DNA of 38,307 nt from Oscillospiraceae bacterium (lineage in GTDB: Bacteria; Bacillota; Clostridia; Oscillospirales; Ruminococcaceae), in contig JAUNSK010000033.1 in assembly GCA_030539275.1 (NCBI GenBank), positions 1-38,307 of the forward strand, written 5' to 3'. Positions 24,074 through 38,307 of the stretch are shown here, piece after piece. Position numbers and translations under genes: made by a program. The notes beneath the pieces were generated by a model, which searched no databases, was not told the origin of the DNA, and saw nothing but the letters and a program-made list of their open reading frames with translations. Each line of letters starts with the position of its first letter. Positions within the stretch are counted from its first letter, which is position 1.

Positions 24074-25411
24074 TCAGCTTAAAATAATAGAACGGAATGA
24101 GGTGCGTATACCACGATACCCTCTCACCTCACGATTTTGCTCCGTCCTTATATGCGTTGAAGCAGTTAAGCCATATTTCAGATGATTAGATTTCAGCCAA
24201 CTGCTGAATATCTCCTTTTTCAGTTCGGTCATCAGATTTTTATGACACCAATCAATATATCCGCTATATAAATTTGTCGTGCTTTCGGATAAGTCCACAC
24301 CGAAACTTACATAAGATTTGTCCTGTAAAAACTCAATGATGTTGCAGTTGTCAGCCATGACCTCTGCAACATTTTTCTTTGTCTTTTCCGAAACGGTAAA
24401 CCGAAAGTTATTTTTGATAAGCCGCCGTAAGCCGTCTAACATCCAACAAAATATTTTTTCTTTCTCTGCTATGAACTGTTCTGCAAGAAATGGATTATTC
24501 ACTCTGCCCTTTGGAATAGGCTTGGTTGTCAGTATCAGCAATCGCCTTGCAAAACCGTCCGATTTGTCATACAACGCTTTCGGAGAACCATTGCCAAAGC
24601 AAAGAAACCGTGGATACATTAAAGCCTGTTCCGACTGATGTCCTTTAGCCTCAACATCAATGGGAATAGCGGCGGTAACAAGATTTTTTATGTAGCCCGT
24701 TGTTTGTAATGCGGTAAGTTGCATATCATCATCAAGCATAAGCAGCTTGTCTTTGAGATTGTAACGAAAGAATTTGTCCGTTTCAATTCGTTGAAAGCTG
24801 CCTGTCAGCATTGCACTTTTGAAAATCTCCTGCAACACAATGCCTATCTGCGACTTACCCTCACCGCCGTTTCCGATAATGAACAGCATAGCTTGTCCTT
24901 TTGTTGACGGTATCAGACAGTAACCGAGATATTCCTGCAGGGTTGTAATATCGTCCATATCAAGCATATCCATAAGGAACAGCAAAAACTTTTCAGGGTA
25001 ATACACGCCGTTCCAAATGTTGGAGTGATACTCAATGTTCAGACGATTTACGCAGAATTGTTTTTCGGGAAGCCAAGTGCAGTCTGTTTTAAGCACCCCA
25101 TTGAGAAGATGTATTTCATTTTCCTTAATGGGCAACGGTTCGCTGTGACATTGCAGTTTTAATGCTTCCAACAAAGATTTGACCTTTCGGAAAATCCCTG
25201 TTGTAACGTGTTCGGTAAGCATTTGAGAAATTCTTACGCTGATAATGCTGTCGGAAACTTCTCCGTCAATGTCATAAAGCTTACCGCCGATACATTTCAA
25301 AGGGTAAGCTTGCAGAAATTCATTACAGAACTCGACTTCGTTTATGACGTTCTTCTCTGTTAGCCATTGCGGTGATTTGTTCTCGCTTGTGTTTACATAA
25401 CTGCTGCTCAA
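24074..25411 (-). CDS. P4/D5-type replicative helicase (primase C-terminal family)
   Basis: The 445-aa product has an SF3-type helicase core: Walker A GNGGEGKS at 180-187, Walker B LLMLDDDM about 45 residues later, and the phrase CFGNGSPKALYDKSDGFARRLLIL as in phage/plasmid D5-like proteins. It should unwind the element's origin. The start is a TTG at 25411, 6 nt after GAGGTGA. It overlaps the end of the primase gene by 89 nt in another frame. The overlap and order suggest translational coupling and a joint primase-helicase function split over two proteins. Confidence 0.8.
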   Translation of the reverse strand: MSSSYVNTSENKSPQWLTEKNVINEVEFCNEFLQAYPLKCIGGKLYDIDGEVSDSIISVRISQMLTEHVTTGIFRKVKSLLEALKLQCHSEPLPIKENEIHLLNGVLKTDCTWLPEKQFCVNRLNIEYHSNIWNGVYYPEKFLLFLMDMLDMDDITTLQEYLGYCLIPSTKGQAMLFIIGNGGEGKSQIGIVLQEIFKSAMLTGSFQRIETDKFFRYNLKDKLLMLDDDMQLTALQTTGYIKNLVTAAIPIDVEAKGHQSEQALMYPRFLCFGNGSPKALYDKSDGFARRLLILTTKPIPKGRVNNPFLAEQFIAEKEKIFCWMLDGLRRLIKNNFRFTVSEKTKKNVAEVMADNCNIIEFLQDKSYVSFGVDLSESTTNLYSGYIDWCHKNLMTELKKEIFSSWLKSNHLKYGLTASTHIRTEQNREVRGYRGIRTSFRSIILS

Positions 25412-25961
25412 TTTTTGTCACCTCATCTTTCATTTCCAATTTCTCATCTTTGTTTGCATTGATAAAGCAGTTGCAGAGATATTCCGTGTAATCAAGTTTA
25501 TTCAAGCTTTCAATAAACCTATTATCAAGCGGTTCATCGGGATTATTTGGAGCATAAGCCGACCGCCAATCCCTTAACAGCTTAAAATATGCGGATAAGG
25601 CTTGCCATGCGGATTTTTCCCATTCTAAATATTCACGCTGTTCAGCCCGTTGGTTATGGTATATGGTGATTTGGTTTTGTGAAAGTGGCTTGTCCATTTC
25701 AATATGTAAGCCAAAGTCATAATTCAGCTTTTTTGCCGCTTCAAGCTGTGAAATTCCAAAAAGCTTTGCGGTAAATCCAATAACATCACCGTGTTCACCA
25801 CAGCCAAAGCAGTAGAAATTATTTTCATATATTTTCATTGACGGAGTTTTATCGTTATGGAACGGACAGCTGCACATTCCGCTGTGACTTATCTGCAAGC
25901 CGTAGAATTTCACAACCTCAGACATACACAGCCTTGATTTTACCTGTTCAAAGATGTTCAA
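25323..25961 (-). CDS. CHC2 zinc-finger DNA primase protein
   Basis: The 212-aa product has a CHC2 zinc finger: C32 and H35 in CPFHNDKTPSM, C51 and C54 in FYCFGCGEHGDV. This is the DNA-binding module found at the N-terminus of bacterial DnaG primases. The TOPRIM catalytic domain is absent, so it is only the recognition half, or is active together with the helicase that overlaps its 3' end. The remaining 110 residues are helical and charged. ATG 25961 overlaps the stop of the HTH gene upstream by 4 nt. Confidence 0.85.
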   Translation of the reverse strand: MNIFEQVKSRLCMSEVVKFYGLQISHSGMCSCPFHNDKTPSMKIYENNFYCFGCGEHGDVIGFTAKLFGISQLEAAKKLNYDFGLHIEMDKPLSQNQITIYHNQRAEQREYLEWEKSAWQALSAYFKLLRDWRSAYAPNNPDEPLDNRFIESLNKLDYTEYLCNCFINANKDEKLEMKDEVTKIEQQLCKHKREQITAMANREERHKRSRVL

Positions 25962-26248
25962 GCTGCACCTCCGAAATATGACAGCAGAGCAGTTTTTGAA
26001 ATGAGTATCTTTCCACGCTGACCCTGACCCGTGCGAATGTACGGCAATTTATCTTGTGCAACAAGCTGTCTGACCGTATGCTCTGATAAGCCCTTGATGG
26101 CTTCCGTACACTCCTTTACAGTGAGCATCTCGATAGGCTGGGACTTGCTTTCGGTAATCGTAATCGGCGGAGCATCGTTCGTTTCAATCATTGTGCTGAG
26201 TAATGTGACTACCTGTGCGATAAGTTCCTGTTTGTTTTTCATTGTCAT
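25958..26248 (-). CDS. Excisionase-like helix-turn-helix protein
   Basis: The product is 96 aa from ATG 26248, which lies 7 nt after GGAGGT; an ATG five codons upstream would put that site inside the gene. The C-terminal half (VKECTEAIKGLSEHTVRQL, then LPYIRTG, then ILISKTALLSYF) is a MerR/HTH_17-type DNA-binding domain, as in Xis and plasmid helix-turn-helix proteins. It may direct excision with the integrase or control replication genes. It is first in the leftward operon that continues with the CHC2 protein and the helicase. Confidence 0.75.
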   Translation of the reverse strand: MTMKNKQELIAQVVTLLSTMIETNDAPPITITESKSQPIEMLTVKECTEAIKGLSEHTVRQLVAQDKLPYIRTGQGQRGKILISKTALLSYFGGAA

Positions 26249-26745
26249 TTTTTTGACCTCCATTTAGTTTGTTTATATGCTTCTCCATAAGATAAGGAGA
26301 TTAGCAGTCTATTTTGGCTACCTGCTTCTGAAAGATTGTAAATTTACACAATGAAATGAAAGTTACGTTATGCAGGATAACGGCTTTCATATATTAAGGT
26401 CATTCAGAGGTGCTTTATATAACTCCCTGAAAATATTTTGTAGAAGAACACAAAAATGATTGATGTGACTTGTGGAATTCGTTGCAGAACAACTGCTCTC
26501 ATAAGTTAGGACGAAAAAGACTTGATTTTACGGTCGTTGCAGAAAATTTCTTAAAACTTTGTCTGTTTTATATAAATTCTGCTCAAATTCTTTGTAACTC
26601 TTGTTGCAACCCTCACCTATAGGAAAAATATCAGTGCTTTTTACGGTCAATTTTAAATATTTCTTTTTCAGTCCTCTGTATTGTACAATTTTCAAACGCT
26701 TTTTTGTGTAAGCTGTTATATAATGTGACGTTCTTCATAAGGCAG

Positions 26746-26856: not shown

Positions 26857-26889
26857 GGCCTTGAAAATTTGCATGATTTGATGTATAAT
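26857..26889 (+). promoter_or_regulatory. Cargo operon promoter with abutting GGCC site
   Basis: TTGAAA (26861-26866) and TATAAT (26884-26889) are 17 bp apart, 34 nt before ATG 26923. GGCC (26857-26860) touches the -35 box directly. GGCC is the expected target of the two enzymes encoded next, so methylation of this site could modulate transcription. Confidence 0.7.
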
Positions 26890-26922
26890 TATATTGAATA
26901 TTTATGCTCTGGAGGCGATCGT

Positions 26923-27765
26923 ATGAATATAATAAATGCAATCATTAACTTGGTTAATAACCCAGTTATAACTATACACGCTCATTATGTTGGACGAAAT
27001 CGTGCAAACAGTATGGGGGACGCGTTAGAAGAATACATTAAAGATTTATTCTGTGGAACATTTGATGAAACTGATGAAGCGAAACGTATTGAAAAGATAA
27101 GCAAGGTGTTTTCGTATCTCGGAAATAATAGTAATCCGCCTGATGGTATGTTGTTCGGTGGTGATGCAATAGAAGTTAAAAAGATTGAAAGTGTTAATTC
27201 AGCGTTGGCACTTAATTCATCTTATCCTAAGCATAAGCTATATGCTGATAGTCCAATGATTAGTAACGCCTGTAAGACAGCTGAAAATTGGACTGAAAAG
27301 GATATTATTTATGCCGTGGGCATAGTAAACGATAATTCACTCAAACATCTAACATTTGTTTACGGTCTCGATTATGCTGCAAGTGATGAGATCTATTCCC
27401 GTATAAAAATGAAAATAAAAGATGGTGTGGAAACCATACCTGACGTTGAGTTTGCGGATACAAAAGAACTAGGTAGGGTAAATAAGGTCGACCCGTTAGG
27501 AATTACATATCTTCGTGTCAGAGGAATGTGGGGTATTGAAAATCCATTCTCGGTTTTTGATTATGTATATAAGCGTGATTTTACAAAAGATTTCAATTTT
27601 ATGTGTATTATCAATGATGAGAAATTTAGCACATTTGCTAACAGACAGAGTCTGATAGATTTGTGCAGTACAAATACAGCGCTATCTATTACTGATGTTA
27701 AAATCAAGAATCCAGACAATCCAGCAAAGCTTGTTAATGCTAAGCTGATAACATACACAATATAG
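26923..27765 (+). CDS. Type II restriction endonuclease, NgoPII-like (GGCC)
   Basis: The product is 280 aa from ATG 26923 after GGAGGCG. It resembles the NgoPII family (RE_NgoPII). The N-terminus [14 protein letters not shown] and the phrase [18 protein letters not shown] fit what I recall of it. A PD-(D/E)XK site can be read as PD (73-74), E84 and K86 in [17 protein letters not shown]. It should cut unmethylated GGCC, the NgoPII site. The adjacent methyltransferase is of the matching type, 8 nt downstream, which supports the call. It is the first gene of the cargo operon. Confidence 0.75.
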
Positions 27766-27773
27766 GTGAAAAA

Positions 27774-28757
27774 ATGAAAATAGTGAGTTTATTTGCTGGT
27801 GCTGGCGGTCTTGATTTAGGTTTTGAACAGGCAGGCTTTGAAATAGTTTATGCTAACGAATATGATTCGTCGATATGGGCTACATATAAAAAAAATCACA
27901 ATGGTTTTCTTGATCAACGCGATATACGAAAGATTGACTCATCTGAAATTCCAGATTGCGACGGAATAATTGGCGGTCCGCCGTGTCAATCTTGGTCGGA
28001 GGCGGGAGCATTAAAGGGCATAGAAGATGCAAGAGGTCAGCTTTTCTATGATTATATTCGTATTCTCAAAGATAAACAGCCAAAATTCTTTTTAGCAGAA
28101 AATGTAGTTGGTATGCTATCGCAAAGGCATAGCTCAGCAGTTGAAAACATAAAGAAAATGTTTGTAGACTGTGGCTATGACCTAACAGTTACTCTTGTTA
28201 ATGTTGCTGATTATGGCATTCCACAGGACAGGAAGCGCGTGTTTTATATCGGCTTTCGCAAGGACTTAAATATTGATTTCAAATTTCCCGAAGCTGGAGA
28301 TGTGCGCCATACACTAAAAGATGCCATATGGGACTTGAAAGACTCTGCTGTTGCTGCGTTAGAAAAGAACTATGCAAATCCAAATGTGGAATTCGCTAAT
28401 CACGAATATTTTACCGGATCGTACTCTACGATATTTATGAGCAGAAACAGAGTGCGTAAATGGGATGAGCCTGGATTTACTGTTCAAGCAAGTGGACGTC
28501 AAGCACAACTTCATCCTCAAGCCCCGATTATGCCCAATGTGGGCAAGAATCGACATATCTTTGCAGAGGGCTATGAGCATTTATACAGAAGAATGACTGT
28601 TCGTGAATGTGCTAGACTTCAGACTTTTCCTGATAGTTTTGAGTTCGTTTATGATAAGGTCGATAACGGGTATAAGATGGTTGGAAATGCAGTGCCGGTA
28701 GAGATGGCGAGGATTATTGGAAAACAAATAAATAAGTATGTAGCATTGAACTTGTAG
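27774..28757 (+). CDS. DNA (cytosine-5) methyltransferase, NgoPII-like (GGCC)
   Basis: The 327-aa product has all main C5 motifs in order: [11 protein letters not shown] (I, residues 7-17), GGPPCQSW (IV, with nucleophile C71), ENV (VI, 109-111), [11 protein letters not shown] (VIII), [15 protein letters not shown] (IX) and GNAVPVEMA (X). It matches M.NgoPII closely in the stretches I can recall, including SWSEAGAL and the recognition-region phrase [17 protein letters not shown], so GGCC methylation is likely. It protects host DNA from the enzyme encoded just upstream. Confidence 0.9.
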
Positions 28758-28803: not shown

Positions 28804-30672
28804 ATGAATAAAGAAATAGCACAGCTACTGTTATTGAGCAGTAATGATAATTCGATGGCAGAAAAAGCTATTATTTATGCTTATATAATAGGAAAGCGTA
28901 TTAAATATACAGACAATAAAGTTTTACGAGATTATTTATCAGATATAAAATCCCAAGAATATGGAACCGTAAACGAATATCTTAATCAAGGAAACCTAAA
29001 AATAAACAAAATCAGCGAATTACTCTGTATTATGGAACAACTTGTATCTGACAATGACAAAAAAGTAAATGGTGTTGTATATACCCCTAATCAAATAAAA
29101 CAGTATATGATTGGCGAAATGGATATATGTTCAAATTATTCAACCAAAACAACAATATGTGATCCAGCTTGTGGCTGCGGGTCTTTTTTAGTTTCACTTG
29201 CTGACTTTTTACACCGAAAGTTTAATGTTAGCTTTTCTGATTTGTTTCAAAAATGTTTGTTTGGAGTAGATATTCTAGAACACAACGTTTTGAAATCCAA
29301 AGTGCTATTAACCATTCTTGCTCTTGAACACGGAGAAAATTATGAGCGGTCTTTCAATCTTCGAGTAGCAAATTCACTAAGTACAAACTGGACTTTAGAA
29401 TTTCCAAATGTATTTAAATATGGTGGTTTTGATTTTATTATTGGTAATCCTCCATATGTAAGTTTGAAAAATATGACCGAGGATGTACGGCAAAGCTTGG
29501 CGAGTTGGAAAACTTCTAATTATGGCAATACTGATTTATATATCGTTTTTTATGAATTGGCATTGAATATAGCCAAGTCAACAGGAACAATAGGATTTAT
29601 TACAATCAACTCTTTTTTTTCTAGTCTAAATGCACGAGGGCTTAGGCAGTTGATCAAGAACACTAAGGTTGATTTCTGTATCCATAATTTTGCAGATAAG
29701 CAGCTATTTGAAAATATTCAAAGTTATACCTGTATTTCAATAATTAAAAAGGGATTGCTTCAAGAAACCTTAATTACCAAATACAACTCAGAGTTTAATA
29801 ATGGTGTTATTAAAACAGATAGAAGAAAAAAAATCAGGCTTAAGCTTGACAAAAAAATAGGCACTGAACCGTGGCTTCTAATAAATAAAACCGAACTAAC
29901 GGATGTAAGCAAAATGCAGTCTTTCAAGCACAAATTATCTGACTATCAAATTAAAAATGGTATTGCTACATTAAGAAATGATATATATATTTTTACCCCA
30001 TCACAAGAAAATGATGAATATTATTTTTTTTTCAAAGACAATGTACAGTGGGTAGTTGAAAAGCAAATATGCAGGGATATAATTAAGCCAAATATCATAA
30101 AAAACGAACAAGATTTGACAACCAAGTTGGAGAAAGCGATTTTTCCATACTATACAAATAATAATATCATTTTGTGCTATGATGAACATACTTTGAGTGA
30201 TGAGTTTCCACAAGCATACTTATATTTATCCTCACAAAGGGATGAATTAGCTAAACGTGATAAAGGTACCAAGAAATATGAACAGTGGTATGCATTTGGA
30301 AGAAGACAGGGAATGAATCCGAATGGAATTAAGGTTCTTATACCGTACATAGCTGAACATCCTATTGCTGTTATTACTACCGACAATGAAATGTTGTACT
30401 ATTGCGGCAATGCTATATTTGTAGAAAGCTTGGACGATGCAAAGTTCGTTAAGCGTGTGATTGAATCGTCATTATTTGACTATTACATTCGTTCGACGAG
30501 TAAACCATATTCAAACGGCTTTTATTCTTTATCCAAATCGTACATAAAAAATTTTACAATACCAGAATTTACGGATAGCGAGTACAAATATTTTATTACG
30601 CTTAATCAAAATGATGCTAATACTTTCTTAGAGAATAAATATGATATTAATTTGAGGTGTAACTATGAATGA
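28804..30672 (+). CDS. N6-adenine DNA methyltransferase, Eco57I/TaqI-like
   Basis: The 622-aa product has the gamma-class order: VVYTPNQIKQYMI (motif X, about 91-103), the SAM-binding loop DPACGCGSF (120-128) and the catalytic NPPY (215-218). A C-terminal half of about 300 residues resembles TaqI-type target recognition, ending with phrases like SSLFDYYIRSTSKPYSNGFYSLSKSYI. There is no N-terminal nuclease, so it is not a type IIG fusion. It lies 46 nt after the C5 methyltransferase and overlaps the DUF262 gene by 8 nt. The target sequence is unknown. It may mark host DNA for the DUF262/HEPN pair. Confidence 0.85.
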   Translation: MNKEIAQLLLLSSNDNSMAEKAIIYAYIIGKRIKYTDNKVLRDYLSDIKSQEYGTVNEYLNQGNLKINKISELLCIMEQLVSDNDKKVNGVVYTPNQIKQYMIGEMDICSNYSTKTTICDPACGCGSFLVSLADFLHRKFNVSFSDLFQKCLFGVDILEHNVLKSKVLLTILALEHGENYERSFNLRVANSLSTNWTLEFPNVFKYGGFDFIIGNPPYVSLKNMTEDVRQSLASWKTSNYGNTDLYIVFYELALNIAKSTGTIGFITINSFFSSLNARGLRQLIKNTKVDFCIHNFADKQLFENIQSYTCISIIKKGLLQETLITKYNSEFNNGVIKTDRRKKIRLKLDKKIGTEPWLLINKTELTDVSKMQSFKHKLSDYQIKNGIATLRNDIYIFTPSQENDEYYFFFKDNVQWVVEKQICRDIIKPNIIKNEQDLTTKLEKAIFPYYTNNNIILCYDEHTLSDEFPQAYLYLSSQRDELAKRDKGTKKYEQWYAFGRRQGMNPNGIKVLIPYIAEHPIAVITTDNEMLYYCGNAIFVESLDDAKFVKRVIESSLFDYYIRSTSKPYSNGFYSLSKSYIKNFTIPEFTDSEYKYFITLNQNDANTFLENKYDINLRCNYE

Positions 30673-31810
30673 ATTATCTGGTCGTTTAAAAGAATTAAAA
30701 AAAGAAATTGCAACTGATTCCTACGCTATGTCGATTGGAGAATTAATTAATCTTTATGTAGACGAGGAAATGGATATTCATCCGAAATTTCAAAGGCTGT
30801 TTAGATGGACACCGTATCAAAAAACGCGCTTTATAGAATCCATTATGCTGAATATCCCCATACCGCCTATTTTTGTATCACAAAACGAAGCCGGTGTATG
30901 GGATGTTGTTGATGGTGTACAGCGACTTTCGACAATTTTTCAATTTGTGGGCAAGCTGAAAGATGAGAATGGGAAAGTTGTTACCCCTTTGGTTCTTGAA
31001 GGAACAAAGACAATTCCCGAATTTGAAGGCATAAGTTGGGATCCTATTGATGAATCGACACACAGCTTGTCACAAGATTTGAAACTTGATTTTAAGCGTT
31101 CAAAGATTGTTGTGAACATCGTAAAGAAAGAGAGTGATTCAAGCGCAAAGTATGAACTCTTTCAACGACTAAATACGGGAGGAAGTAAGCTGAGTGAACA
31201 AGAAGTACGGAATTGTTTGATGATTATGAGCAATCCGGTGATGTATGATTTTGTAAATAAGTTGTCAGAAAACGATATGTTTGTAAATACAACGCCGATG
31301 TCTACACGTATGATCGAAGAACAATATCGTATGGAGCTTATTGTAAGATATCTTATTGCAATTAACTGTGATGTTTCTACCGCAAAAAAAAGCGGTACAG
31401 ATTTAGCTCCGTTTTTAAATGACAAAATACTCGAGCTATGCAATAACCGTAGTTTTGACTTCGAAAGTCAAAAGGACATATTTATTTCAGTACTAACGTT
31501 ATTGTTAAGCATATCAGAGTATGGTATTTCGCAAGATGATGTATTTAAAAAATATACGGACAAGTTTTCAGGTGCAATGTTAAGCTCAGCGTATTTGACA
31601 ATTACTGTAGGATTAGCGAAAAGAATAAAACACCACAGAGACATCACTTCAACCGAGTACAAAAAAATTTTGAGTAATAAAATCAAGGCTTTATCTTCAC
31701 AAGAAACTTTTGTCAAATATACTGCAAACGGAGTTAGAGCGGTAGATAGATATGTGAATCTTATTTCATTTGGAGAGGAGTATTTCGACGATGAAATTAA
31801 CAACGGTTGA
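30665..31810 (+). CDS. DUF262 protein, GmrS/SspE-type N-terminal domain without nuclease
   Basis: The 381-aa product carries the DUF262 signature: HPKFQRLFRWTPYQKTRFIESIMLNIPIPPIF (about 39-70 in two parts) and WDVVDGVQRLST (79-90). DUF262 is a ParB-like NTP-using domain found in type IV restriction enzymes (GmrSD) and SspE, where it senses modified DNA. Those proteins usually also carry a DUF1524 HNH nuclease, which is missing here. The ATG sits inside the end of the methyltransferase gene, with GAGGTG 5 nt upstream. The HEPN gene overlaps its 3' end by 20 nt, so a sensor plus separate effector is inferred. Confidence 0.85.
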   Translation: MNELSGRLKELKKEIATDSYAMSIGELINLYVDEEMDIHPKFQRLFRWTPYQKTRFIESIMLNIPIPPIFVSQNEAGVWDVVDGVQRLSTIFQFVGKLKDENGKVVTPLVLEGTKTIPEFEGISWDPIDESTHSLSQDLKLDFKRSKIVVNIVKKESDSSAKYELFQRLNTGGSKLSEQEVRNCLMIMSNPVMYDFVNKLSENDMFVNTTPMSTRMIEEQYRMELIVRYLIAINCDVSTAKKSGTDLAPFLNDKILELCNNRSFDFESQKDIFISVLTLLLSISEYGISQDDVFKKYTDKFSGAMLSSAYLTITVGLAKRIKHHRDITSTEYKKILSNKIKALSSQETFVKYTANGVRAVDRYVNLISFGEEYFDDEINNG

Positions 31811-32525
31811 TGAATTGTCCGATATACTTGACAAAGAAATCAGCTGGCGACGTGTTGAATTAACAACAATGAAGTTTAGTGTAAAATGTGCCAAAGGACA
31901 AGAACTGAACACAAGACTACGTGCTAGTCTTGTCCTATTGTATGCTCATTGGGAAGGCTTTGTAAAAAAGGCACTTACATACTACTTACAATTTGTATCA
32001 AATCAAAAACTTGTGAACAGGGAGCTTAATCATTGCTTTTTTGCAATAGAACTTAAATATGATTTGAAATTATTCTCTGAAAGCAAAAAAAACACAGTGC
32101 ATACTCAAATCGTCAATGATATGTTTGACAAACTTGATGAAATATCAAATATACCATACAAAAAGATGATAGATACTAAAAGCAATCTAAAATCAGAGTT
32201 ATTTGTCGAATTAATGAAAACAGTCGGATTAGACTATTCTGATTATGAAACAGAATTCGCACTCATTGATACTCGATTATTGAAAGTTAGAAATGAAATA
32301 GCTCATGGCGAAGCAATGCAAGCACTTTCGCTTACCCAAGAAAGTTATCTTGAACTTCATGAAAAAATTATTACCATTGTGGATAGATTAAGAGAACAAA
32401 TAATTGAATCTGCCCGAAATAAGAATTATATGAAATTAACATCGCCTTCTGATGATGCAAGCGCACAATTTGTTGATGAAATAAATGATTCATCAGAAAA
32501 CAATAAGATTTTGCTACCTATATGA
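31791..32525 (+). CDS. HEPN-domain protein, MAE_28990/MAE_18760-like
   Basis: The product is 244 aa from ATG 31791, 10 nt after GAGGAG; it overlaps the DUF262 gene by 20 nt. The phrase LLYAHWEGFVKKA (49-61) is typical of the MAE_28990-type HEPN family. The catalytic R-x4-H is R167-NEIA-H172 in KVRNEIAHGEAM, the ribonuclease motif of HEPN toxins and defence effectors. The C-terminal 30 residues are acidic and probably disordered. It is the last gene before the right end of the element. It probably acts as an RNase effector released or switched on by the DUF262 protein. This is inference, as some HEPN proteins are inert partners. Confidence 0.85.
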   Translation: MKLTTVDELSDILDKEISWRRVELTTMKFSVKCAKGQELNTRLRASLVLLYAHWEGFVKKALTYYLQFVSNQKLVNRELNHCFFAIELKYDLKLFSESKKNTVHTQIVNDMFDKLDEISNIPYKKMIDTKSNLKSELFVELMKTVGLDYSDYETEFALIDTRLLKVRNEIAHGEAMQALSLTQESYLELHEKIITIVDRLREQIIESARNKNYMKLTSPSDDASAQFVDEINDSSENNKILLPI

Positions 32526-32842: not shown

Positions 32843-33850
32843 TTATGCAAGCTTTAGCACCACCAAATCTGCGAACTTTGTCTTTGAGCTTTTCAGTACC
32901 TCTGCATACACATTAGCCGTAACTTCACTCCGCTATGACCTAAATGCTCGGATACTATTTTCAGGTCAACAAGAAGAAGTGTTGCGTTGCAATGCCGCAA
33001 ACTATGTAATGTTAGAAAATCAAACCTGTTCCTTTCAGAAAACGCTTGAATGATGTGTTGAGAGAGCTGATGAGCACATTTACTTCAGAGGTTATACATA
33101 AGCTTATCCTGCTGCTTTTTATGCTCTTGCAGAATATCGGAAAGAATCTGACTCATTCCGATGGTACGAATACTGCTTTCGATCTTCGGTGTGGTAAGAA
33201 AATGCTTACCACCGATATCAGCAAGGTTGTGATTGATAGAAATAGTCCGGTCTGCAAAATCTATGTCCTCTCAAGAAAGTCCCAAGCATTCGCCGGAACG
33301 CATACCGGTGTAAAGCAATACTTTTATAATGTTCTTTGAATTGTTCTCCCAAGCTTTGGTTTCAAGTAACGTAAGAAAGGCTTTTGCTTTATTTCTCGTC
33401 GAGTACCGGCTTTTTCTTTCTGTGACGTTTTGGAAGAATAACGTGTTTACAGGGAGTATCGCGTATAAACCCTGTTCTACGCCACGGGAAAAAATGCTTT
33501 GCAGAACAACATAGATTTTCTTGACGGTATTTGAGTTTAGCTTGTAGCTTTGCTTTATCTCGGTAATTTTCGGCGTTGTTATGTCTTTTAACTTCATATT
33601 GCCGATTACAGGAGCAAGGTGATTGTCGTACTGGCTTTTGTAGTTGTAGGTTGTGCTTTCTTTCAGCTCAACAGGAGCATAGCTGCTGAAATACCAATCA
33701 GCAAGTTCGGAAAAACGCATATTTTCGTTTAGCGTTGAGTAACCGCGACATTTTTGCTCAAACTCGACCGCAAATTCATTCGCCAGTTTTTTACCTTTGC
33801 TCTCGGTGGTGTTTGACGGCAGCTTCATTAGTACCTACAAAAATCGTCGA
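32843..33850 (-). pseudogene. Decayed tyrosine integrase of element 2
   Basis: Reading leftwards, pieces match the element 1 integrase in order: RFSELADWYFSSYAPVELKES, the TGMRSGECLGL active-site Arg block, INHNLAD, TTPK, HSLRHCNAT and NVYAEVL with the Tyr. The reading frame is lost near 33480 and regained near 33390. The Trp codon after GLS is TGA (33271-33273). Part of the segment between 33050 and 33110 is missing or altered, and the HLRH-to-LGH stretch is shortened. The N-terminal 30 residues lack a start codon in frame. No functional recombinase can be made. Confidence 0.85.
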
Positions 33851-34197
33851 TTTTTTAAGTCTGTTTCCGAAAGATTTTCAAAATACTGTAGTAATTTACA
33901 AACGGGACAGCTTTTTCGACCTTTTAGGTTGTGCATAATATGCCTTCTCACTCAACAGGAGAAAAAACGGGTAAAATCAATGCAATTTCTTTGCTTTTGC
34001 AAAAGTTTTTTTGAAGTTCTCAGATTTGCACAGTTTTGTCTTGCGACTTTTGGACAAAATGAAATTCTGCTTCTTAAATAGAAAAGAAACAGTCAGAGGA
34101 AATTTATTTGTTGATTTTTGGCATAGTGTATGGTATAATATCATTAAATAACTTCCGATAATTTTAGATTATGAGAACTTATGAATGGGGTGACGTT
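33851..34197. other. Intergenic region before hsdR
   Basis: There is no supported gene in these 347 nt. The left part has weak remains of the integrase N-terminus. The right part holds the hsdR promoter. Confidence 0.55.
34111..34139 (+). promoter_or_regulatory. Promoter of the type I restriction operon
   Basis: TTGATT (34111-34116) and TATAAT (34134-34139) are 17 bp apart, with an extended TGG before the -10. ATG 34198 lies 58 nt downstream. Confidence 0.7.
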
Positions 34198-36570
34198 ATG
34201 AGCATATTGTCGAAAAAACAAATGACTGAAGAAGATATTAAGCTTCAGTTTATCACTCCAGCATTAATGTCATGCGGATGGAAAGACAAGATTACGATGG
34301 AAACGCAGGTTAAGATTACAGACGGAAAAATAAATCTACGCGGTAATTTTGTTGTCAGAGAAAAGCCAAAGAAAGCGGACTATGTTCTTTATATTAACGA
34401 CAATTACCCCATTGCAATCGTTGAAGCAAAGGATAACAATCATTCTGTTTCACACGGCTTACAACAAGCAATGACTTATGCTCAGATGTTAAAACTGCCA
34501 TATGCGTATACCTCAAACGGTGATGCGTTTATGGAACATGATTTTCTTACAGGTACTGAACGAGAGATAAAACTCGAAGATTTCCCAACTCCCGACGAGT
34601 TGCTTAATCGTTTCAAAAATGGTGGAAACAATGGTAACGGCTTAAATGATGCTGAAATTGCTATTATGAATCAGCCGTACTATACGAGTATGAATACATA
34701 TCCACCGAGATATTATCAGCGAAATGCGGTAAACCTTACTCTTGACGCAATAGCGAGAAGTCAAGACCGTATTTTACTTGTGATGGCAACAGGCACAGGG
34801 AAAACATATACAGCATTTCAAATAGTATATCGTTTGCTTAAAAGTGGAATGAAACATAAGGTACTTTACCTTGCAGACAGAAATATTCTTGTTGACCAGT
34901 CAATTCAGCAGGACTTTGCTCCACTTGAGAAAACAATTCATAAGATTAATTTCGCAAAGGATGACCCTGTAACAATCACTTCTCACGAAGTGTATTTCTC
35001 GCTCTATCAGCAACTAACCGGTAATTCGGGAAAAGAAGATGAAGTCAGTGATGAAGAATCGGTTATGCGGTTTGCCTCATTGTTCAGTAAAGATTTCTTT
35101 GATTTGATAATTGTTGATGAGTGTCACAGAGGTTCGGCGAAAAAGGACAGTAACTGGCGTAAAATACTTGAATACTTTTCATCAGCAACACAGATAGGTA
35201 TGACTGCTACTCCGAAAGAAACTAAATATATCTCAAATATTGATTATTTTGGAGAGCCAATTTATACTTACAGTTTGCGTGAAGGCATTGAAGATGGATT
35301 TCTTGCACCTTTTAAGGTTATCGACATTGTAACCGATATAGGTGACGGATGGCGTCCTCGTCTTGGTCAGCGCGATATTAATGGTAATGAAATTGAAGAC
35401 AGAATTTACAATAATAGTGATTTCGATTACAATATTGTAATCAAAGATCGAATTGAGCAAGTTGCTACAGAAATAACCAACTATCTGAAGTCAACGGATC
35501 GTATGGCAAAAACCATTGTTTTCTGTGCAACAGAGGAACACGCTGAAAGAATGCGAGTAGCTCTTACAAATTTAAACAAAGATATGTGCAAGAAAAATCC
35601 CGATTACGTTGTAAGAATTACGGGAAGTGATGTTTACGGTAAAAGTAAACTTGATTATTTCATTTCCGTATCTGCAAAATACCCTGTAATTGCCACTACT
35701 TCACAGCTTCTTTCTACGGGAGCCGACTGTAAAATGACGAAGCTCATCGTGCTCGACAAAACTATCGGCTCGATGACCGAATTTAAACAAATTATCGGTC
35801 GAGGTACTCGTCTGCGTGAAAAAGAAGGGAAAACTCACTTTGTCGTTATGGACTTCCGAAAGGTTACAAGACTTTTTGCTGACCCAGATTGGGATGGCGA
35901 AGCGGTGCAGGATGATAACTACAATCCAAACATAAACGGAAATAATGGAAAGCAGGGAACGACACCTCCGCCCTATCCACCGGTAGATCCTCCACAGGAA
36001 AAGCCTATTGTGGATAAAGATGGATGTACAGTGAAAATAATCAACAAGACGGTTTCTGTATATGATACAAATGGTAAGCTTCTGCGCCAAGAAAGCATAA
36101 TCGACTATACAAAGACAAATATTCTCGGTGAATATGCGTCCCTTGACAATTTCATACGTCGTTGGAGTGCAGAAGAAAAGAAAGAGAGTATTCAGGAACT
36201 GCTAAAAGAAAGAGGTATTGACCTCGAAATGCTGAAAGCAGATCAGAATATGACTGATGTGGATGATTATGATTTCATAGTCCACCTTGCGTTTGACCAA
36301 AAGCCATTGACAAGAAAAGAACGTGCGGAGAACGTAAAGAAACGTGATTTTCTGTATAAATACAGCGGCACGGCAAAAGAAGTGCTTGAAGCCTTGCTCG
36401 ATAAGTATATGAATTCGGGCATATATGAGCTTGAAAAGACGGATATTTTAAAGCTTGACCCGTTTACAAAGCTTGGTAAACCGTCACGAATTGCCCAGAT
36501 GTTCGGCGGTAAAGACGGCTATTTGCAGGCTGTAAAAGAACTTGAAGATGAAATATATAAGGTAGGTTAA
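34198..36570 (+). CDS. hsdR: Type I restriction enzyme R subunit
   Basis: The product is 790 aa from ATG 34198, with GGGGTGA just upstream; an ATG nine codons earlier has no site. The N-terminal nuclease has D61 and E76-A-K78 (DYVLYI, IVEAK), the PD-(D/E)XK type. The SF2 motor has ATGTGKT (197-203), DECHR and TATP, and later QIIGRGTRLRE (motif VI). It translocates DNA and cuts it far from the recognition site when that site is unmethylated, in a complex with HsdM and HsdS. hsdM follows after 4 nt. The length is on the short side for HsdR but all core motifs are present. Confidence 0.95.
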   Translation: MSILSKKQMTEEDIKLQFITPALMSCGWKDKITMETQVKITDGKINLRGNFVVREKPKKADYVLYINDNYPIAIVEAKDNNHSVSHGLQQAMTYAQMLKLPYAYTSNGDAFMEHDFLTGTEREIKLEDFPTPDELLNRFKNGGNNGNGLNDAEIAIMNQPYYTSMNTYPPRYYQRNAVNLTLDAIARSQDRILLVMATGTGKTYTAFQIVYRLLKSGMKHKVLYLADRNILVDQSIQQDFAPLEKTIHKINFAKDDPVTITSHEVYFSLYQQLTGNSGKEDEVSDEESVMRFASLFSKDFFDLIIVDECHRGSAKKDSNWRKILEYFSSATQIGMTATPKETKYISNIDYFGEPIYTYSLREGIEDGFLAPFKVIDIVTDIGDGWRPRLGQRDINGNEIEDRIYNNSDFDYNIVIKDRIEQVATEITNYLKSTDRMAKTIVFCATEEHAERMRVALTNLNKDMCKKNPDYVVRITGSDVYGKSKLDYFISVSAKYPVIATTSQLLSTGADCKMTKLIVLDKTIGSMTEFKQIIGRGTRLREKEGKTHFVVMDFRKVTRLFADPDWDGEAVQDDNYNPNINGNNGKQGTTPPPYPPVDPPQEKPIVDKDGCTVKIINKTVSVYDTNGKLLRQESIIDYTKTNILGEYASLDNFIRRWSAEEKKESIQELLKERGIDLEMLKADQNMTDVDDYDFIVHLAFDQKPLTRKERAENVKKRDFLYKYSGTAKEVLEALLDKYMNSGIYELEKTDILKLDPFTKLGKPSRIAQMFGGKDGYLQAVKELEDEIYKVG

Positions 36571-36574
36571 TCTA

Positions 36575-38065
36575 ATGGCTAATATAAATAATTTTGTAAA
36601 GCGTATCCGTGATATAATGCGTAACGATGCGGGAATTAACGGTGATGCACAGCGTATCGAGCAGATAGCGTGGATGTTATTTCTTAAAGTGTACGACAGT
36701 AAGGAAGAGGAGTGGGAATTTGACGATGACAACTATAAGTCGATAATTCCCGATGATTGCCGTTGGAAAAACTGGGCTTATGACGATAAATCAGGCTCGG
36801 CAATGACAGGCGATACGCTTCTTAACTTTGTAAACAACGTTTTGTTTGTAAAGCTCAAATCAATTATCGTTGCGCCTGATACTCCGATAAAGAAAGCTAT
36901 TGTTAGGACAACCTTTGAGGATGCCAACAACTATATGAAGGACGGCGTTCTTTTAAGACAGGTGTTAAATGTCATTGATGAACTGGATTTGGGCGATTAT
37001 GATGAAAGCCACGCTTTCGGTGAAATATACGAATCTATACTGCGCGAATTGCAGAGTGCAGGTTCATCGGGTGAGTTTTACACTCCTCGTGCCGTAACAG
37101 ATTTTATGGCAAAAATGATAAAGCCAAAGATAGGCGAACATGTTGCGGATTTTGCGTGTGGAACAGGCGGTTTTTTAACAAGCTGGCTTAAAGAGCTTGA
37201 AAAATGTAAGGAAACCACCGAAGACCAAGCAGAATACGATAATTCCATATTCGGAATTGAGAAAAAACAGTTTCCATATATGCTTTGCGTAACAAATATG
37301 CTGCTTCATGGCATTGATGTTCCGAAAATATATCACGATAATTCCTTGCTAAAAGATGTTCTTGACTACACGGATGATGATAAATTCGAGGTTGTTTTGA
37401 TGAATCCCCCTTATGGAGGAAATGAAAAGATCGAGGTTAAAAATCATTTTCCGTCGGATTTGGCAAGCAGCGAAACCGCAGATTTATTTATGTCTGTAAT
37501 TATGTACAGGCTCAAAGAAAACGGACGAGCTGCTGTTATTCTACCGGACGGTTTTCTCTTTGGCACAGATAATGCAAAGGTAGCAATAAAAAAGAAACTT
37601 CTGTCAGAGTTTAATCTCCATACAATAATACGTATGCCGCACAGCGTTTTCGCACCTTATACGTCAATAACAACAAACATTCTATTCTTTGATAACACGC
37701 AGCCGACAACCGAAACTTGGTTTTACCGTCTTGATATGCCGGACGGCTATAAGAATTTTTCAAAGACAAAGCCAATGAAGCTTGAACACTTTGCTCCTGC
37801 TATGGAGTGGTGGGATAATCGTACGGAAATAGCTGTTGACGGCTTTGATAAGGCAAAGAAATACACTGCACAAGAGATTGCGGACAAAAACTACAACATT
37901 GACCTTTGCGGTTATCCTCACGAGGAAGAAGAAATTCTGCCGCCGAAGGAGCTTATTCAGCAGTATCAGGAAAAACGTTCAAGTCTGAACGCCGATATTG
38001 ACAGAATACTTGATGAAATTATCGATGCGCTTGGCGTTGATATAATGGGTGATGGTAATGAGTAA
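36575..38065 (+). CDS. hsdM: Type I restriction-modification M subunit (N6-adenine methyltransferase)
   Basis: The 496-aa product has an HsdM N-terminal domain (about 1-140), then SGEFYTPRAVTDFM (165-178), the SAM motif DFACGTGGF (192-200) and the catalytic NPPYGG (277-282). It methylates adenine in the asymmetric target chosen by HsdS. The ATG is 4 nt after the hsdR stop, and hsdS overlaps its end by 8 nt, so the three genes are tightly coupled. The sequence is complete and looks functional. Confidence 0.95.
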   Translation: MANINNFVKRIRDIMRNDAGINGDAQRIEQIAWMLFLKVYDSKEEEWEFDDDNYKSIIPDDCRWKNWAYDDKSGSAMTGDTLLNFVNNVLFVKLKSIIVAPDTPIKKAIVRTTFEDANNYMKDGVLLRQVLNVIDELDLGDYDESHAFGEIYESILRELQSAGSSGEFYTPRAVTDFMAKMIKPKIGEHVADFACGTGGFLTSWLKELEKCKETTEDQAEYDNSIFGIEKKQFPYMLCVTNMLLHGIDVPKIYHDNSLLKDVLDYTDDDKFEVVLMNPPYGGNEKIEVKNHFPSDLASSETADLFMSVIMYRLKENGRAAVILPDGFLFGTDNAKVAIKKKLLSEFNLHTIIRMPHSVFAPYTSITTNILFFDNTQPTTETWFYRLDMPDGYKNFSKTKPMKLEHFAPAMEWWDNRTEIAVDGFDKAKKYTAQEIADKNYNIDLCGYPHEEEEILPPKELIQQYQEKRSSLNADIDRILDEIIDALGVDIMGDGNE

Positions 38066-38307
38066 TAAATATGATAGCAGCCGTATGACTGCACAGCAAC
38101 TGAAAAACTCAATACTTCAAATGGCTGTACAGGGCAAGCTTGTGCCACAGGACCCAAACGACGAGCCTGCAAGCGTGCTGCTTGAAAAAATCCGTGCAGA
38201 AAAAGCAAAGCTTGTTAAGGAAAAGAAAATCAAGGCAGACAAGAATGAGTCATTCATTTACCGTGGTGCCGATAATACCACCTATGAGAAAATCGGCGAT
38301 GTGGTTA
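38058..38307 (+). CDS. hsdS: Type I restriction-modification S subunit, 5' part only
   Basis: It starts at ATG 38058 inside the hsdM stop region (AATGAGTAA) and is cut by the window end after 83 codons. The visible phrase LKNSILQMAVQGKLVPQDPN followed by EPASVLLEKIRAEKAKL is the conserved helical segment that HsdS proteins carry at the start or between their two target recognition domains. It determines the DNA target, which cannot be told from this piece. Confidence 0.9.
   Translation, partial: MSNKYDSSRMTAQQLKNSILQMAVQGKLVPQDPNDEPASVLLEKIRAEKAKLVKEKKIKADKNESFIYRGADNTTYEKIGDVV

What the first reader, a model, noticed from the sequence alone, without database searches (positions are those of the whole stretch)
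28804..32525. Coupled trio of adenine methyltransferase, DUF262 protein and HEPN protein: candidate undescribed defence system
Three genes overlap in sequence (8 nt and 20 nt), a sign of strict co-expression: an Eco57I/TaqI-like N6-adenine methyltransferase without a nuclease, a DUF262 protein without the DUF1524 nuclease domain, and a HEPN protein with an intact R-x4-H site (R167, H172). In known DUF262 systems (GmrSD, SspE) a nuclease is fused to the DUF262 domain. Here HEPN would replace it, suggesting that the DUF262 protein senses DNA modification state and controls an RNase effector. The element places the trio behind a complete GGCC restriction system, which needs none of these genes. 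I cannot exclude that the trio is already catalogued under another name.
Basis: partly seen in the sequence, partly recalled or inferred. Interest (0 to 1): 0.8.

Follow-up and report, generated by a model that had tools for sequence, protein, structure and literature searches.

The report
DNA methylase with sensor–RNase defence pair
Three packed genes encode a DNA-marking enzyme, a likely DNA-state sensor and a likely RNA-cutting toxin; the last two are a known kind of anti-virus pair, and related pairs in several bacterial and viral lineages have a DNA-marking gene beside them, which hints at restriction that cuts RNA instead of DNA.

Summary
Observation confirmed: an N6-adenine methyltransferase (MTase), a DUF262 protein without DUF1524, and a MAE_28990-type HEPN protein with R167/H172 overlap by 8 and 20 nt. 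The architecture is in print: a 2013 HEPN survey lists MAE_28990 "in operon with a ParB nuclease and DNA methylase genes" (PMC3710099; DUF262 is ParB-like), and DUF262+HEPN is PD-T4-2, shown to act against T4 (PMC9519451, PMC10952713).

The DUF262–HEPN pair is the core: HEPN follows DUF262 in 79 of 80 genome loci. But coupling is a clade trait. All 6 sampled rows of the window's DUF262 clade have an Eco57I-family MTase directly upstream. In viral contigs 22 of 30 clusters have an adjacent MTase, C5 or N6, with seeds nearly all from MTase-bearing loci; MTase-less seeds gave 0 of 10 further clusters.

Best reading: a modification-coupled DUF262–HEPN module, R-M-like logic with an RNase effector; no cognate restriction enzyme was found. 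Which DNA state triggers it is unknown. New variant of a known kind.

The parts
28804..30672 (+). N6-adenine DNA methyltransferase of the Eco57I/TaqI-like group, 622 aa, motifs DPACGCG (residue 120) and NPPY (residue 215); presumed modification arm
   Evidence: Pfam Eco57I 1.4e-28; PADLOC MTase_II PDLC03335 1.4e-106 over residues 36-616; solved relatives 8cxz/7lni over residues 82-607, E about 2e-17; motifs
30665..31810 (+). DUF262 (GmrSD_N, ParB/Srx-like) protein, 381 aa, DGVQR at residue 83, no DUF1524; presumed sensor/switch
   Evidence: Pfam GmrSD_N 3.3e-25; PADLOC NsnA 8.1e-58 and PD-T4-2_A 4.6e-32; D83 G84 Q86 R87 invariant in 58 rows; AF2 model pLDDT 92.4; first Foldseek match BrxU, E 3.7e-3, none under 0.001
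31791..32525 (+). HEPN protein (MAE_28990/RiboL-PSP-HEPN), 244 aa, R167-x4-H172; presumed RNase effector (alternative TTG start at 31770)
   Evidence: Pfam PF18735 2.3e-35 and PF18737 6e-33; R167, H172, G173 invariant in 66 rows; AF2 model pLDDT 93.6, mainly helical
27774..28757 (+). Context, not part of the trio: C5 cytosine methyltransferase of the upstream type II R-M system
   Evidence: Pfam DNA_methylase 1.2e-100
26869..27765 (+). Context, not part of the trio: NgoPII-type restriction endonuclease
   Evidence: Pfam RE_NgoPII 8e-113

Best explanation
The trio is a modification-coupled DUF262-HEPN defence module. SHOWN: three packed genes; a strict DUF262-HEPN pair with an intact R-x4-H site; an MTase coupled to this DUF262 clade and, separately, to other clades. 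INFERRED: the MTase marks resident DNA; the DUF262 protein (ParB-like, DGxQR pocket that binds NTP in its relatives) reads the DNA or modification state and keeps HEPN off in properly marked cells; entry of DNA in the wrong state releases HEPN, which cuts RNA and stops the infection, probably by growth arrest. It is restriction-modification logic in which the cutting subunit is an RNase behind a DUF262 switch. I commit to 'MTase mark = licence' over 'mark = trigger', because an MTase kept beside a sensor that fires on its own mark should be lethal; this polarity is the least certain step.
For: Packed, overlapping genes. HEPN directly behind DUF262, same strand, in 79 of 80 genome loci; pattern R-x4-6-HG in 77 of those 79; R167/H172 invariant in the 66 rows aligned. 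Eco57I MTase is the commonest Pfam family of the immediate upstream gene, 6 of 77. An MTase is found in 9 of 156 immediate neighbours against 6 of 638 genes four or more away (odds 6.4, p 6e-4; loci not fully independent). Window clade: 6 of 6 sampled rows with an upstream MTase, SH-aLRT 97 (96). Viral contigs: 55 of 67 with an immediate MTase, 22 of 30 clusters at 70% identity, against 7 of 452 genes three or more away; with a stricter HEPN profile 48 of 59 contigs and 20 of 28 clusters. The MTases are non-homologous classes, C5 in 13 and N6 in 9 viral clusters and several N6 families elsewhere, in upstream, downstream and convergent positions, which points to the DNA mark rather than one protein interface as the common feature. 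Coupling follows the DUF262 tree: 10 changes against 26-37 in 100 shuffles. Flanking genes of 22 viral trios: repressor and phage families lead, no restriction family among the 25 of 44 shown. DUF262 model: BrxU, ParB-N and SspE are the top matches, at low global TM. [quoted passage not shown]
Against: In 67 of 80 genome loci no MTase was found within two genes, and 18 further viral contigs (10 clusters) found with MTase-less seeds have none, so the pair can do without an MTase in cis. Polarity: GmrSD and BrxU act on modified DNA, and PMC10952713 (passages) suggests that the DUF262 of Dazbog recognises methylated DNA; PMC12409349 (passage) says methylases can activate Dazbog. That fits 'mark = trigger' better than 'mark = licence'. 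MTases are exchanged even inside the window clade: window and L013 share one type (37-38% identity), L016 and L019 carry an M.Eco57I type about 20% identical to the window's, and L017 goes with them; this is awkward if DUF262 must read the same motif. In L013, L016 and L019 a type IIG-like protein is also present, so the MTase may belong to that system. Nearly all seeds of the viral scans A10, A13 and A14 came from MTase-bearing loci (all but L009), which inflates the 22 of 30. No function was tested.
Confidence: 0.45

Rival explanations
1. PrrC-like guard: DUF262-HEPN is a second line behind an R-M system (here the GGCC system and/or the N6 MTase). It stays off while the R-M proteins or their marks are intact and kills the cell when a phage disables them.
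For: R-M genes beside the pair in several lineages: type IIG-like + M (L013, L016, L019), BsuBI/PstI (L003, L023, L090), PaeR7I (L007), type III R (L027), and NgoPII + C5 here. PMC3710099 section 10 (read) proposes this model for HEPN genes near R-M.
Against: Viral trios show no restriction enzyme among the 25 of 44 families listed for their flanking genes; in 67 of 80 loci no MTase was found within two genes; a PrrC-type ABC-HEPN fusion is absent.
Confidence: 0.25
2. Stand-alone pair: DUF262-HEPN is a PD-T4-2-like two-gene system that senses a phage cue; the MTase is an orphan or the left-over M gene of an Eco57I-type system and only travels along.
For: Pair strictly conserved, MTase in 13 of 80; 0 of 10 further viral clusters with MTase-less seeds; PADLOC models PD-T4-2 with two components and it protects against T4 (PMC9519451); relatives of the MTase occur with no DUF262 in the stretch fetched (L107, L113, L114, L115).
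Against: Repeated clade-wide coupling to unrelated MTases and persistence of the coupling on the tree.
Confidence: 0.25
3. Toxin-antitoxin pair: DUF262 is simply the antitoxin of the HEPN toxin and the genes serve upkeep of the mobile element.
For: Two overlapping genes, effector second, found on plasmids and viral contigs.
Against: Conserved DGxQR pocket and a BrxU/SspE-like fold suggest more than a neutraliser; MTase coupling unexplained.
Confidence: 0.05

Closest known systems
PD-T4-2 (Vassallo et al. 2022, PMC9519451; domains in PMC10952713)
   Same: DUF262 + HEPN core; PD-T4-2_A profile matches (4.6e-32)
   Different: Window HEPN does not match PD-T4-2_B; the window has an MTase; its DUF262 is 20-26% identical to the two E. 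coli DUF262 proteins aligned
MAE_28990 HEPN operon type (Anantharaman et al. 2013, PMC3710099)
   Same: HEPN of this family in operon with a ParB-like gene and a DNA methylase: the same three-part architecture
   Different: One table line without a named system; neither the clade-specific coupling nor the phage-borne C5 form appears in the passages and the one section I saw
SspABCD-SspE, GmrSD, BrxU
   Same: DUF262 module linked to DNA modification; BrxU and SspE among the top fold matches
   Different: They carry a DUF1524/HNH nuclease; here HEPN and no DUF1524; the modification here is methylation
Menshen (nsnABC)
   Same: DUF262 protein matches NsnA (8.1e-58); two Vibrio phages carry a C5 MTase before a DUF262 system, in one of them noted as Menshen NsnA-C
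   Different: The HEPN partner here has no PADLOC match
PrrC/EcoprrI
   Same: HEPN RNase beside modification genes; may work alike
   Different: No ABC-ATPase-HEPN fusion; separate genes
Eco57I-type IIG + M systems
   Same: In L013, L016 and L019 the MTase next to the pair goes with a type IIG-like protein
   Different: No relative of the L013 protein other than the MTase itself in the window's genome

Membership tests
PD-T4-2 | DUF262 gene directly followed by HEPN gene | tested here: met
PD-T4-2 | PD-T4-2_A profile match | tested here: met
   4.6e-32, (NsnA scores higher, 8.1e-58)
PD-T4-2 | PD-T4-2_B profile match | tested here: not met
   No PADLOC family for the window HEPN at E 0.01; the E. 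coli HEPN of L010 matches at 4e-4
PD-T4-2 | Protection against T4 | not testable with these tools
   No bench work
MAE_28990 HEPN with ParB and DNA methylase (PMC3710099) | PF18737 match with R-x4-6-H | tested here: met
   6e-33; R167/H172
MAE_28990 HEPN with ParB and DNA methylase (PMC3710099) | Operon with ParB-like and DNA methylase genes | tested here: met
   Overlapping same-strand genes; co-transcription itself not tested
GmrSD / BrxU / SspE | DUF262 domain | tested here: met
   GmrSD_N 3.3e-25; fold match E 3.7e-3
GmrSD / BrxU / SspE | DUF1524 nuclease domain | tested here: not met
   No DUF1524 in the three proteins at E 0.01
Type II R-M for the N6 MTase | Cognate restriction endonuclease beside it | tested here: inconclusive
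   The adjacent endonuclease is NgoPII-type with its own C5 MTase; no other relative of the L013 IIG-like protein in the draft genome. An endonuclease of another family elsewhere was not searched for
Menshen | NsnA plus NsnB and NsnC | tested here: not met
   NsnA matches; the HEPN and MTase genes have no NsnB/NsnC match among the families shown
PrrC | ABC ATPase fused to HEPN | tested here: not met
   HEPN protein matches HEPN models only

The most novel reading that the evidence does not exclude
Restriction without DNA cleavage: non-homologous DNA methyltransferases (C5 and N6) were recruited several times by DUF262-HEPN pairs to form an R-M-like system in which the mark licenses self and an RNase, not a DNase, punishes the wrong state. 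The window belongs to a clade of it whose named members are Clostridia and Leptotrichia; in my sample the largest coupled clade is on viral contigs.
Probability: 0.33. Interest if true: 0.82.

Novelty: new variant of a known kind. Interest (0 to 1): 0.6.

Why it matters
PD-T4-2 protects against T4, but the passages I saw do not say what it senses. Clades that keep an MTase beside the pair give a direct handle: if methylation sets the switch, DUF262's cue is a DNA modification state, and systems with modification and an RNase effector would join R-M. It would also explain why MTases without a visible restriction enzyme sit beside such pairs on viral contigs.

Tried and rejected
Rejected: (1) 'HEPN replaces a nuclease only here': HEPN follows DUF262 in 79 of 80 loci. 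(2) 'The MTase is an obligate third part': found within two genes in only 13 of 80. (3) 'MTases lie next to the pair merely because phages carry orphan MTases': 18 further viral contigs found with MTase-less seeds have none. (4) 'File it as PD-T4-2': PD-T4-2_B not met.

Led nowhere: viral scan with the window DUF262 alone (no relative); relatives search (1 weak match besides the own genome in 61); paper search for NsnABC (unrelated acronyms; that Nsn is Menshen is recalled and borne out by the record notes); Foldseek of both models (nothing under E 0.001); PDB sequence search with the HEPN profile (none); phages search with the prophage N6 MTase (none); class search with A10 (one other genome of 391 at E 1e-60).

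Rows dropped and limits of the counts: one search left L024 and L036 out of both lists and L048, L072, L087, L088 out of the HEPN list; A11 used 57 of the 78 listed DUF262 rows plus the window, A12 65 of the 74 listed HEPN rows plus the window (left out to shorten the lists: for A12 L018, L025, L032, L039, L052, L059, L061, L063, L081). The HEPN pattern is absent in L063 and L072, the latter a short frame. MTases were sought with an N6 profile, a C5 profile and one beta-class query only, so 13 of 80 is a lower bound. Five viral contigs found twice were counted once. L131's partner gene was a seed of the wider HEPN profile before I found that it does not match HEPN; strict counts: 59 of 67 contigs keep the pair, 48 with an immediate MTase, 20 of 28 clusters, and all 18 control contigs keep it. 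One search's p-value treats contigs as independent, which they are not. In one search each viral cluster is represented by a member with an MTase if it has one.

Full report
WHAT IS THERE. The three genes are present as described, with 8- and 20-nt overlaps and R167/H172 in HEPN numbered from the ATG at 31791. Domain hits: Eco57I/N6_Mtase for the first protein, GmrSD_N (DUF262) without DUF1524 for the second, and both RiboL-PSP-HEPN and MAE_28990 HEPN for the third. Upstream lie an NgoPII-type endonuclease and a C5 MTase; downstream an integrase fragment and a type I system. The MTase aligns over residues 82-607 with solved adenine MTases 8cxz/7lni (I recall these as CamA of C. difficile, an orphan MTase).

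THE CORE IS A PAIR. HEPN follows DUF262 on the same strand in 79 of 80; in L048 the contig ends 141 nt behind DUF262, and in L024 the DUF262 frame is split. The pattern R-x4-6-HG is found in 77 of the 79 (not L063, L072). R167, H172 and G173 are invariant in the 66 rows aligned, and D83, G84, Q86 and R87 of DUF262 in 58 rows. AlphaFold models are confident (HEPN pLDDT 93.6; DUF262 92.4). The DUF262 model finds BrxU first (probability 0.99, E 3.7e-3), then ParB-N and SspE, with low global TM-scores and nothing under E 0.001. The HEPN model finds nothing under E 0.001.

WHAT IS KNOWN. PMC3710099 (passages and section 10) lists for MAE_28990: 'In operon with a ParB nuclease and DNA methylase genes', and proposes that HEPN RNases near R-M genes act as a PrrC-like second line. 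PMC10952713 (passages) places DUF262 and HEPN in PD-T4-2; PMC9519451 (passages and section 7) reports that deleting PD-T4-2 in its native strain raises T4 plaquing dramatically. So both the pair and the three-part architecture are in print. My searches for a named trio showed none in their listings, in a library that lacks most subscription papers.

IS THE MTASE PART OF IT? Globally no. With an N6 profile, a C5 profile and one beta-class query, an MTase lies within two genes in 13 of 80 loci; other MTase classes were not probed. None was found in the five long regions L108-L112 around pairs from the phylum search. Of 10 plasmid regions opened out of 720 records with a DUF262 match, an MTase is annotated within two genes of the pair in 4 (L003, L007, L011, L012). 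Locally yes. Pfam on the immediate upstream gene of 77 loci gives Eco57I as the most frequent family, 6 of 77. The downstream set of 79 and a control set of 77 list no such excess among the 25 families shown, though one control gene (L016:6694-8670) is itself Eco57I-type. Immediate neighbours: 9 of 156 against 6 of 638 genes at rank four or more, p 6e-4, the loci not being fully independent.

A CLADE WITH AN MTASE IN EVERY ROW. In quick maximum-likelihood trees of 98 and 108 DUF262 rows the window groups with L013, L024, L019, L016 and L017 (SH-aLRT 96 and 97). In the 133-row FastTree the same six cluster at 91. All six have an Eco57I-family MTase as the next gene upstream. The nearest relative, L013 (DUF262 62% identical, MTase 37-38%), has a 1022-aa Eco57I protein in front of that MTase. 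L019 has a 1011-aa protein with HSDR_N and Eco57I domains there, and L016 has one split over its contig ends, which share 127 nt and suggest an 8.5-kb circular plasmid. For L017 the region is not readable (run of N), and in L024 I did not look further. The window's draft genome has no other relative of the L013 protein. So the window may have lost a IIG partner and kept MTase + pair, with the GGCC genes in that place now; this is inference.

OTHER CLADES. BsuBI/PstI R-M genes lie beside the pair in L003, L023 and L090; PaeR7I in L007; a type III R gene in L027. An MTase lies directly behind the pair, with no endonuclease annotated next to it, in L012 and in Terrisporobacter phage TVCOM_ph1, L117. 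Of 38 phage records with a DUF262 match I opened 10. A DUF262-HEPN pair is seen in 5: L117, L127, L128, L130 by Pfam, L129 by its record's note. Four of the 5 have an adjacent MTase: C5 in Mcat24, Chambord and P2_4B2 (there in two ORFs), N6 in TVCOM_ph1; Vibrio PE004 has none annotated. In Chambord the C5 MTase overlaps DUF262 by 8 nt, as in the window. Two Vibrio phages carry a C5 MTase before a DUF262 system, one noted in its record as Menshen NsnA-C. Klebsiella phi5.4 has DUF262 with a partner that does not match HEPN and no MTase annotated. In the other two records no HEPN or MTase is annotated beside DUF262; I did not test those neighbours.

VIRAL CONTIGS. Scans with A10, A13 and A14 gave 67 distinct contigs with the pair. 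55 have an MTase as immediate neighbour: 52 directly behind HEPN (51 convergent) and 3 before DUF262; 22 of 30 clusters at 70% identity (C5 in 13, N6 in 9), 24 within two genes; genes at rank three or more 7 of 452. With a stricter HEPN profile: 48 of 59 contigs, 20 of 28 clusters. All seeds but L009 came from MTase-bearing loci, so a control scan used seeds with no MTase found within two genes (A15): 15 of its 37 loci are contigs already found; of the 22 new ones 18 have the pair, in 10 clusters, none with an MTase found, a few of them cut near one edge. Together 22 of 40 clusters. Thus coupling goes with particular DUF262 clades and is not a by-product of living on phages. On a tree of 133 rows, 37 with an immediate MTase, the state needs 10 changes against 26-37 in 100 shuffles. 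Of 61 genes flanking 22 viral trios the leading Pfam families are HTH/S24 repressors, then terminase and replication proteins; no restriction-enzyme family is in the 25 of 44 shown.

MECHANISM. The common factors of coupled clades are DUF262, HEPN and DNA methylation by non-homologous enzymes, which argues for the mark rather than a single protein contact. [quoted passage not shown] I therefore favour a licence model: the mark keeps DUF262-HEPN silent, and wrong-state DNA releases the RNase. Against it: GmrSD and BrxU act on modified DNA, the DUF262 of Dazbog is suggested to recognise methylated DNA (PMC10952713, passages) and methylases can activate Dazbog (PMC12409349, passage); MTases are exchanged within the clade; and the many MTase-less pairs must use another cue. 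The PrrC-like guard model and the hitchhiker model remain open.

VERDICT. Observation confirmed; interpretation partly supported; new variant of a known kind.

Noticed in passing
window 34171-38306: EcoAI/FtnUII-type hsdR (1081 bits to NF046051), hsdM, and the start of a frame that looks like hsdS by eye, cut by the window end: a further R-M system in the same stretch.
   Followed up: no
window 33271-33828 (-) and 24074-26263 (-): Tyrosine integrase fragment (185 aa) on one side; P4-type primase and CHC2 zinc-finger primase pieces plus a 101-aa gene that looks excisionase-like by eye (not scanned) on the other: probably an integrative element with this cargo.
   Followed up: partly
L016 (BNUG01000073.1, 8672 bp): Contig ends share 127 nt, so probably an 8.5-kb circular plasmid carrying a type IIG-like gene, M.Eco57I-type MTase, DUF262 and HEPN, with a TIR-domain gene beside HEPN.
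   Followed up: partly
L132 (Vibrio phage L9-1) 1368-6686 and L133 (Vibrio phage 10N.286.55.E6_PE002) 1957-7101: C5 MTase directly before a DUF262 system, noted as Menshen NsnA/NsnB/NsnC in L133: a DUF262-MTase link with a different effector.
   Followed up: no
L018, L020, L021, L022: In four cyanobacterial loci the gene before the pair is 330 aa long; phenylalanyl-tRNA synthetase is found in 4 of 77 upstream genes, presumably these, one inherited site.
   Followed up: no
L065 10860-12080 and L016 4608-5333: Abi_2 and TIR-domain genes directly behind the pair, suggesting stacked suicide effectors.
   Followed up: no
L027 1505-4552: Type III restriction subunit (ResIII + RE_endonuc) directly upstream of the pair.
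   Followed up: no
Genes flanking viral trios (alignment A16): One flanking gene is an ApeA-type HEPN protein (ApeA_NTD1 2.3e-60, HEPN_Apea 1.8e-41).
   Followed up: no
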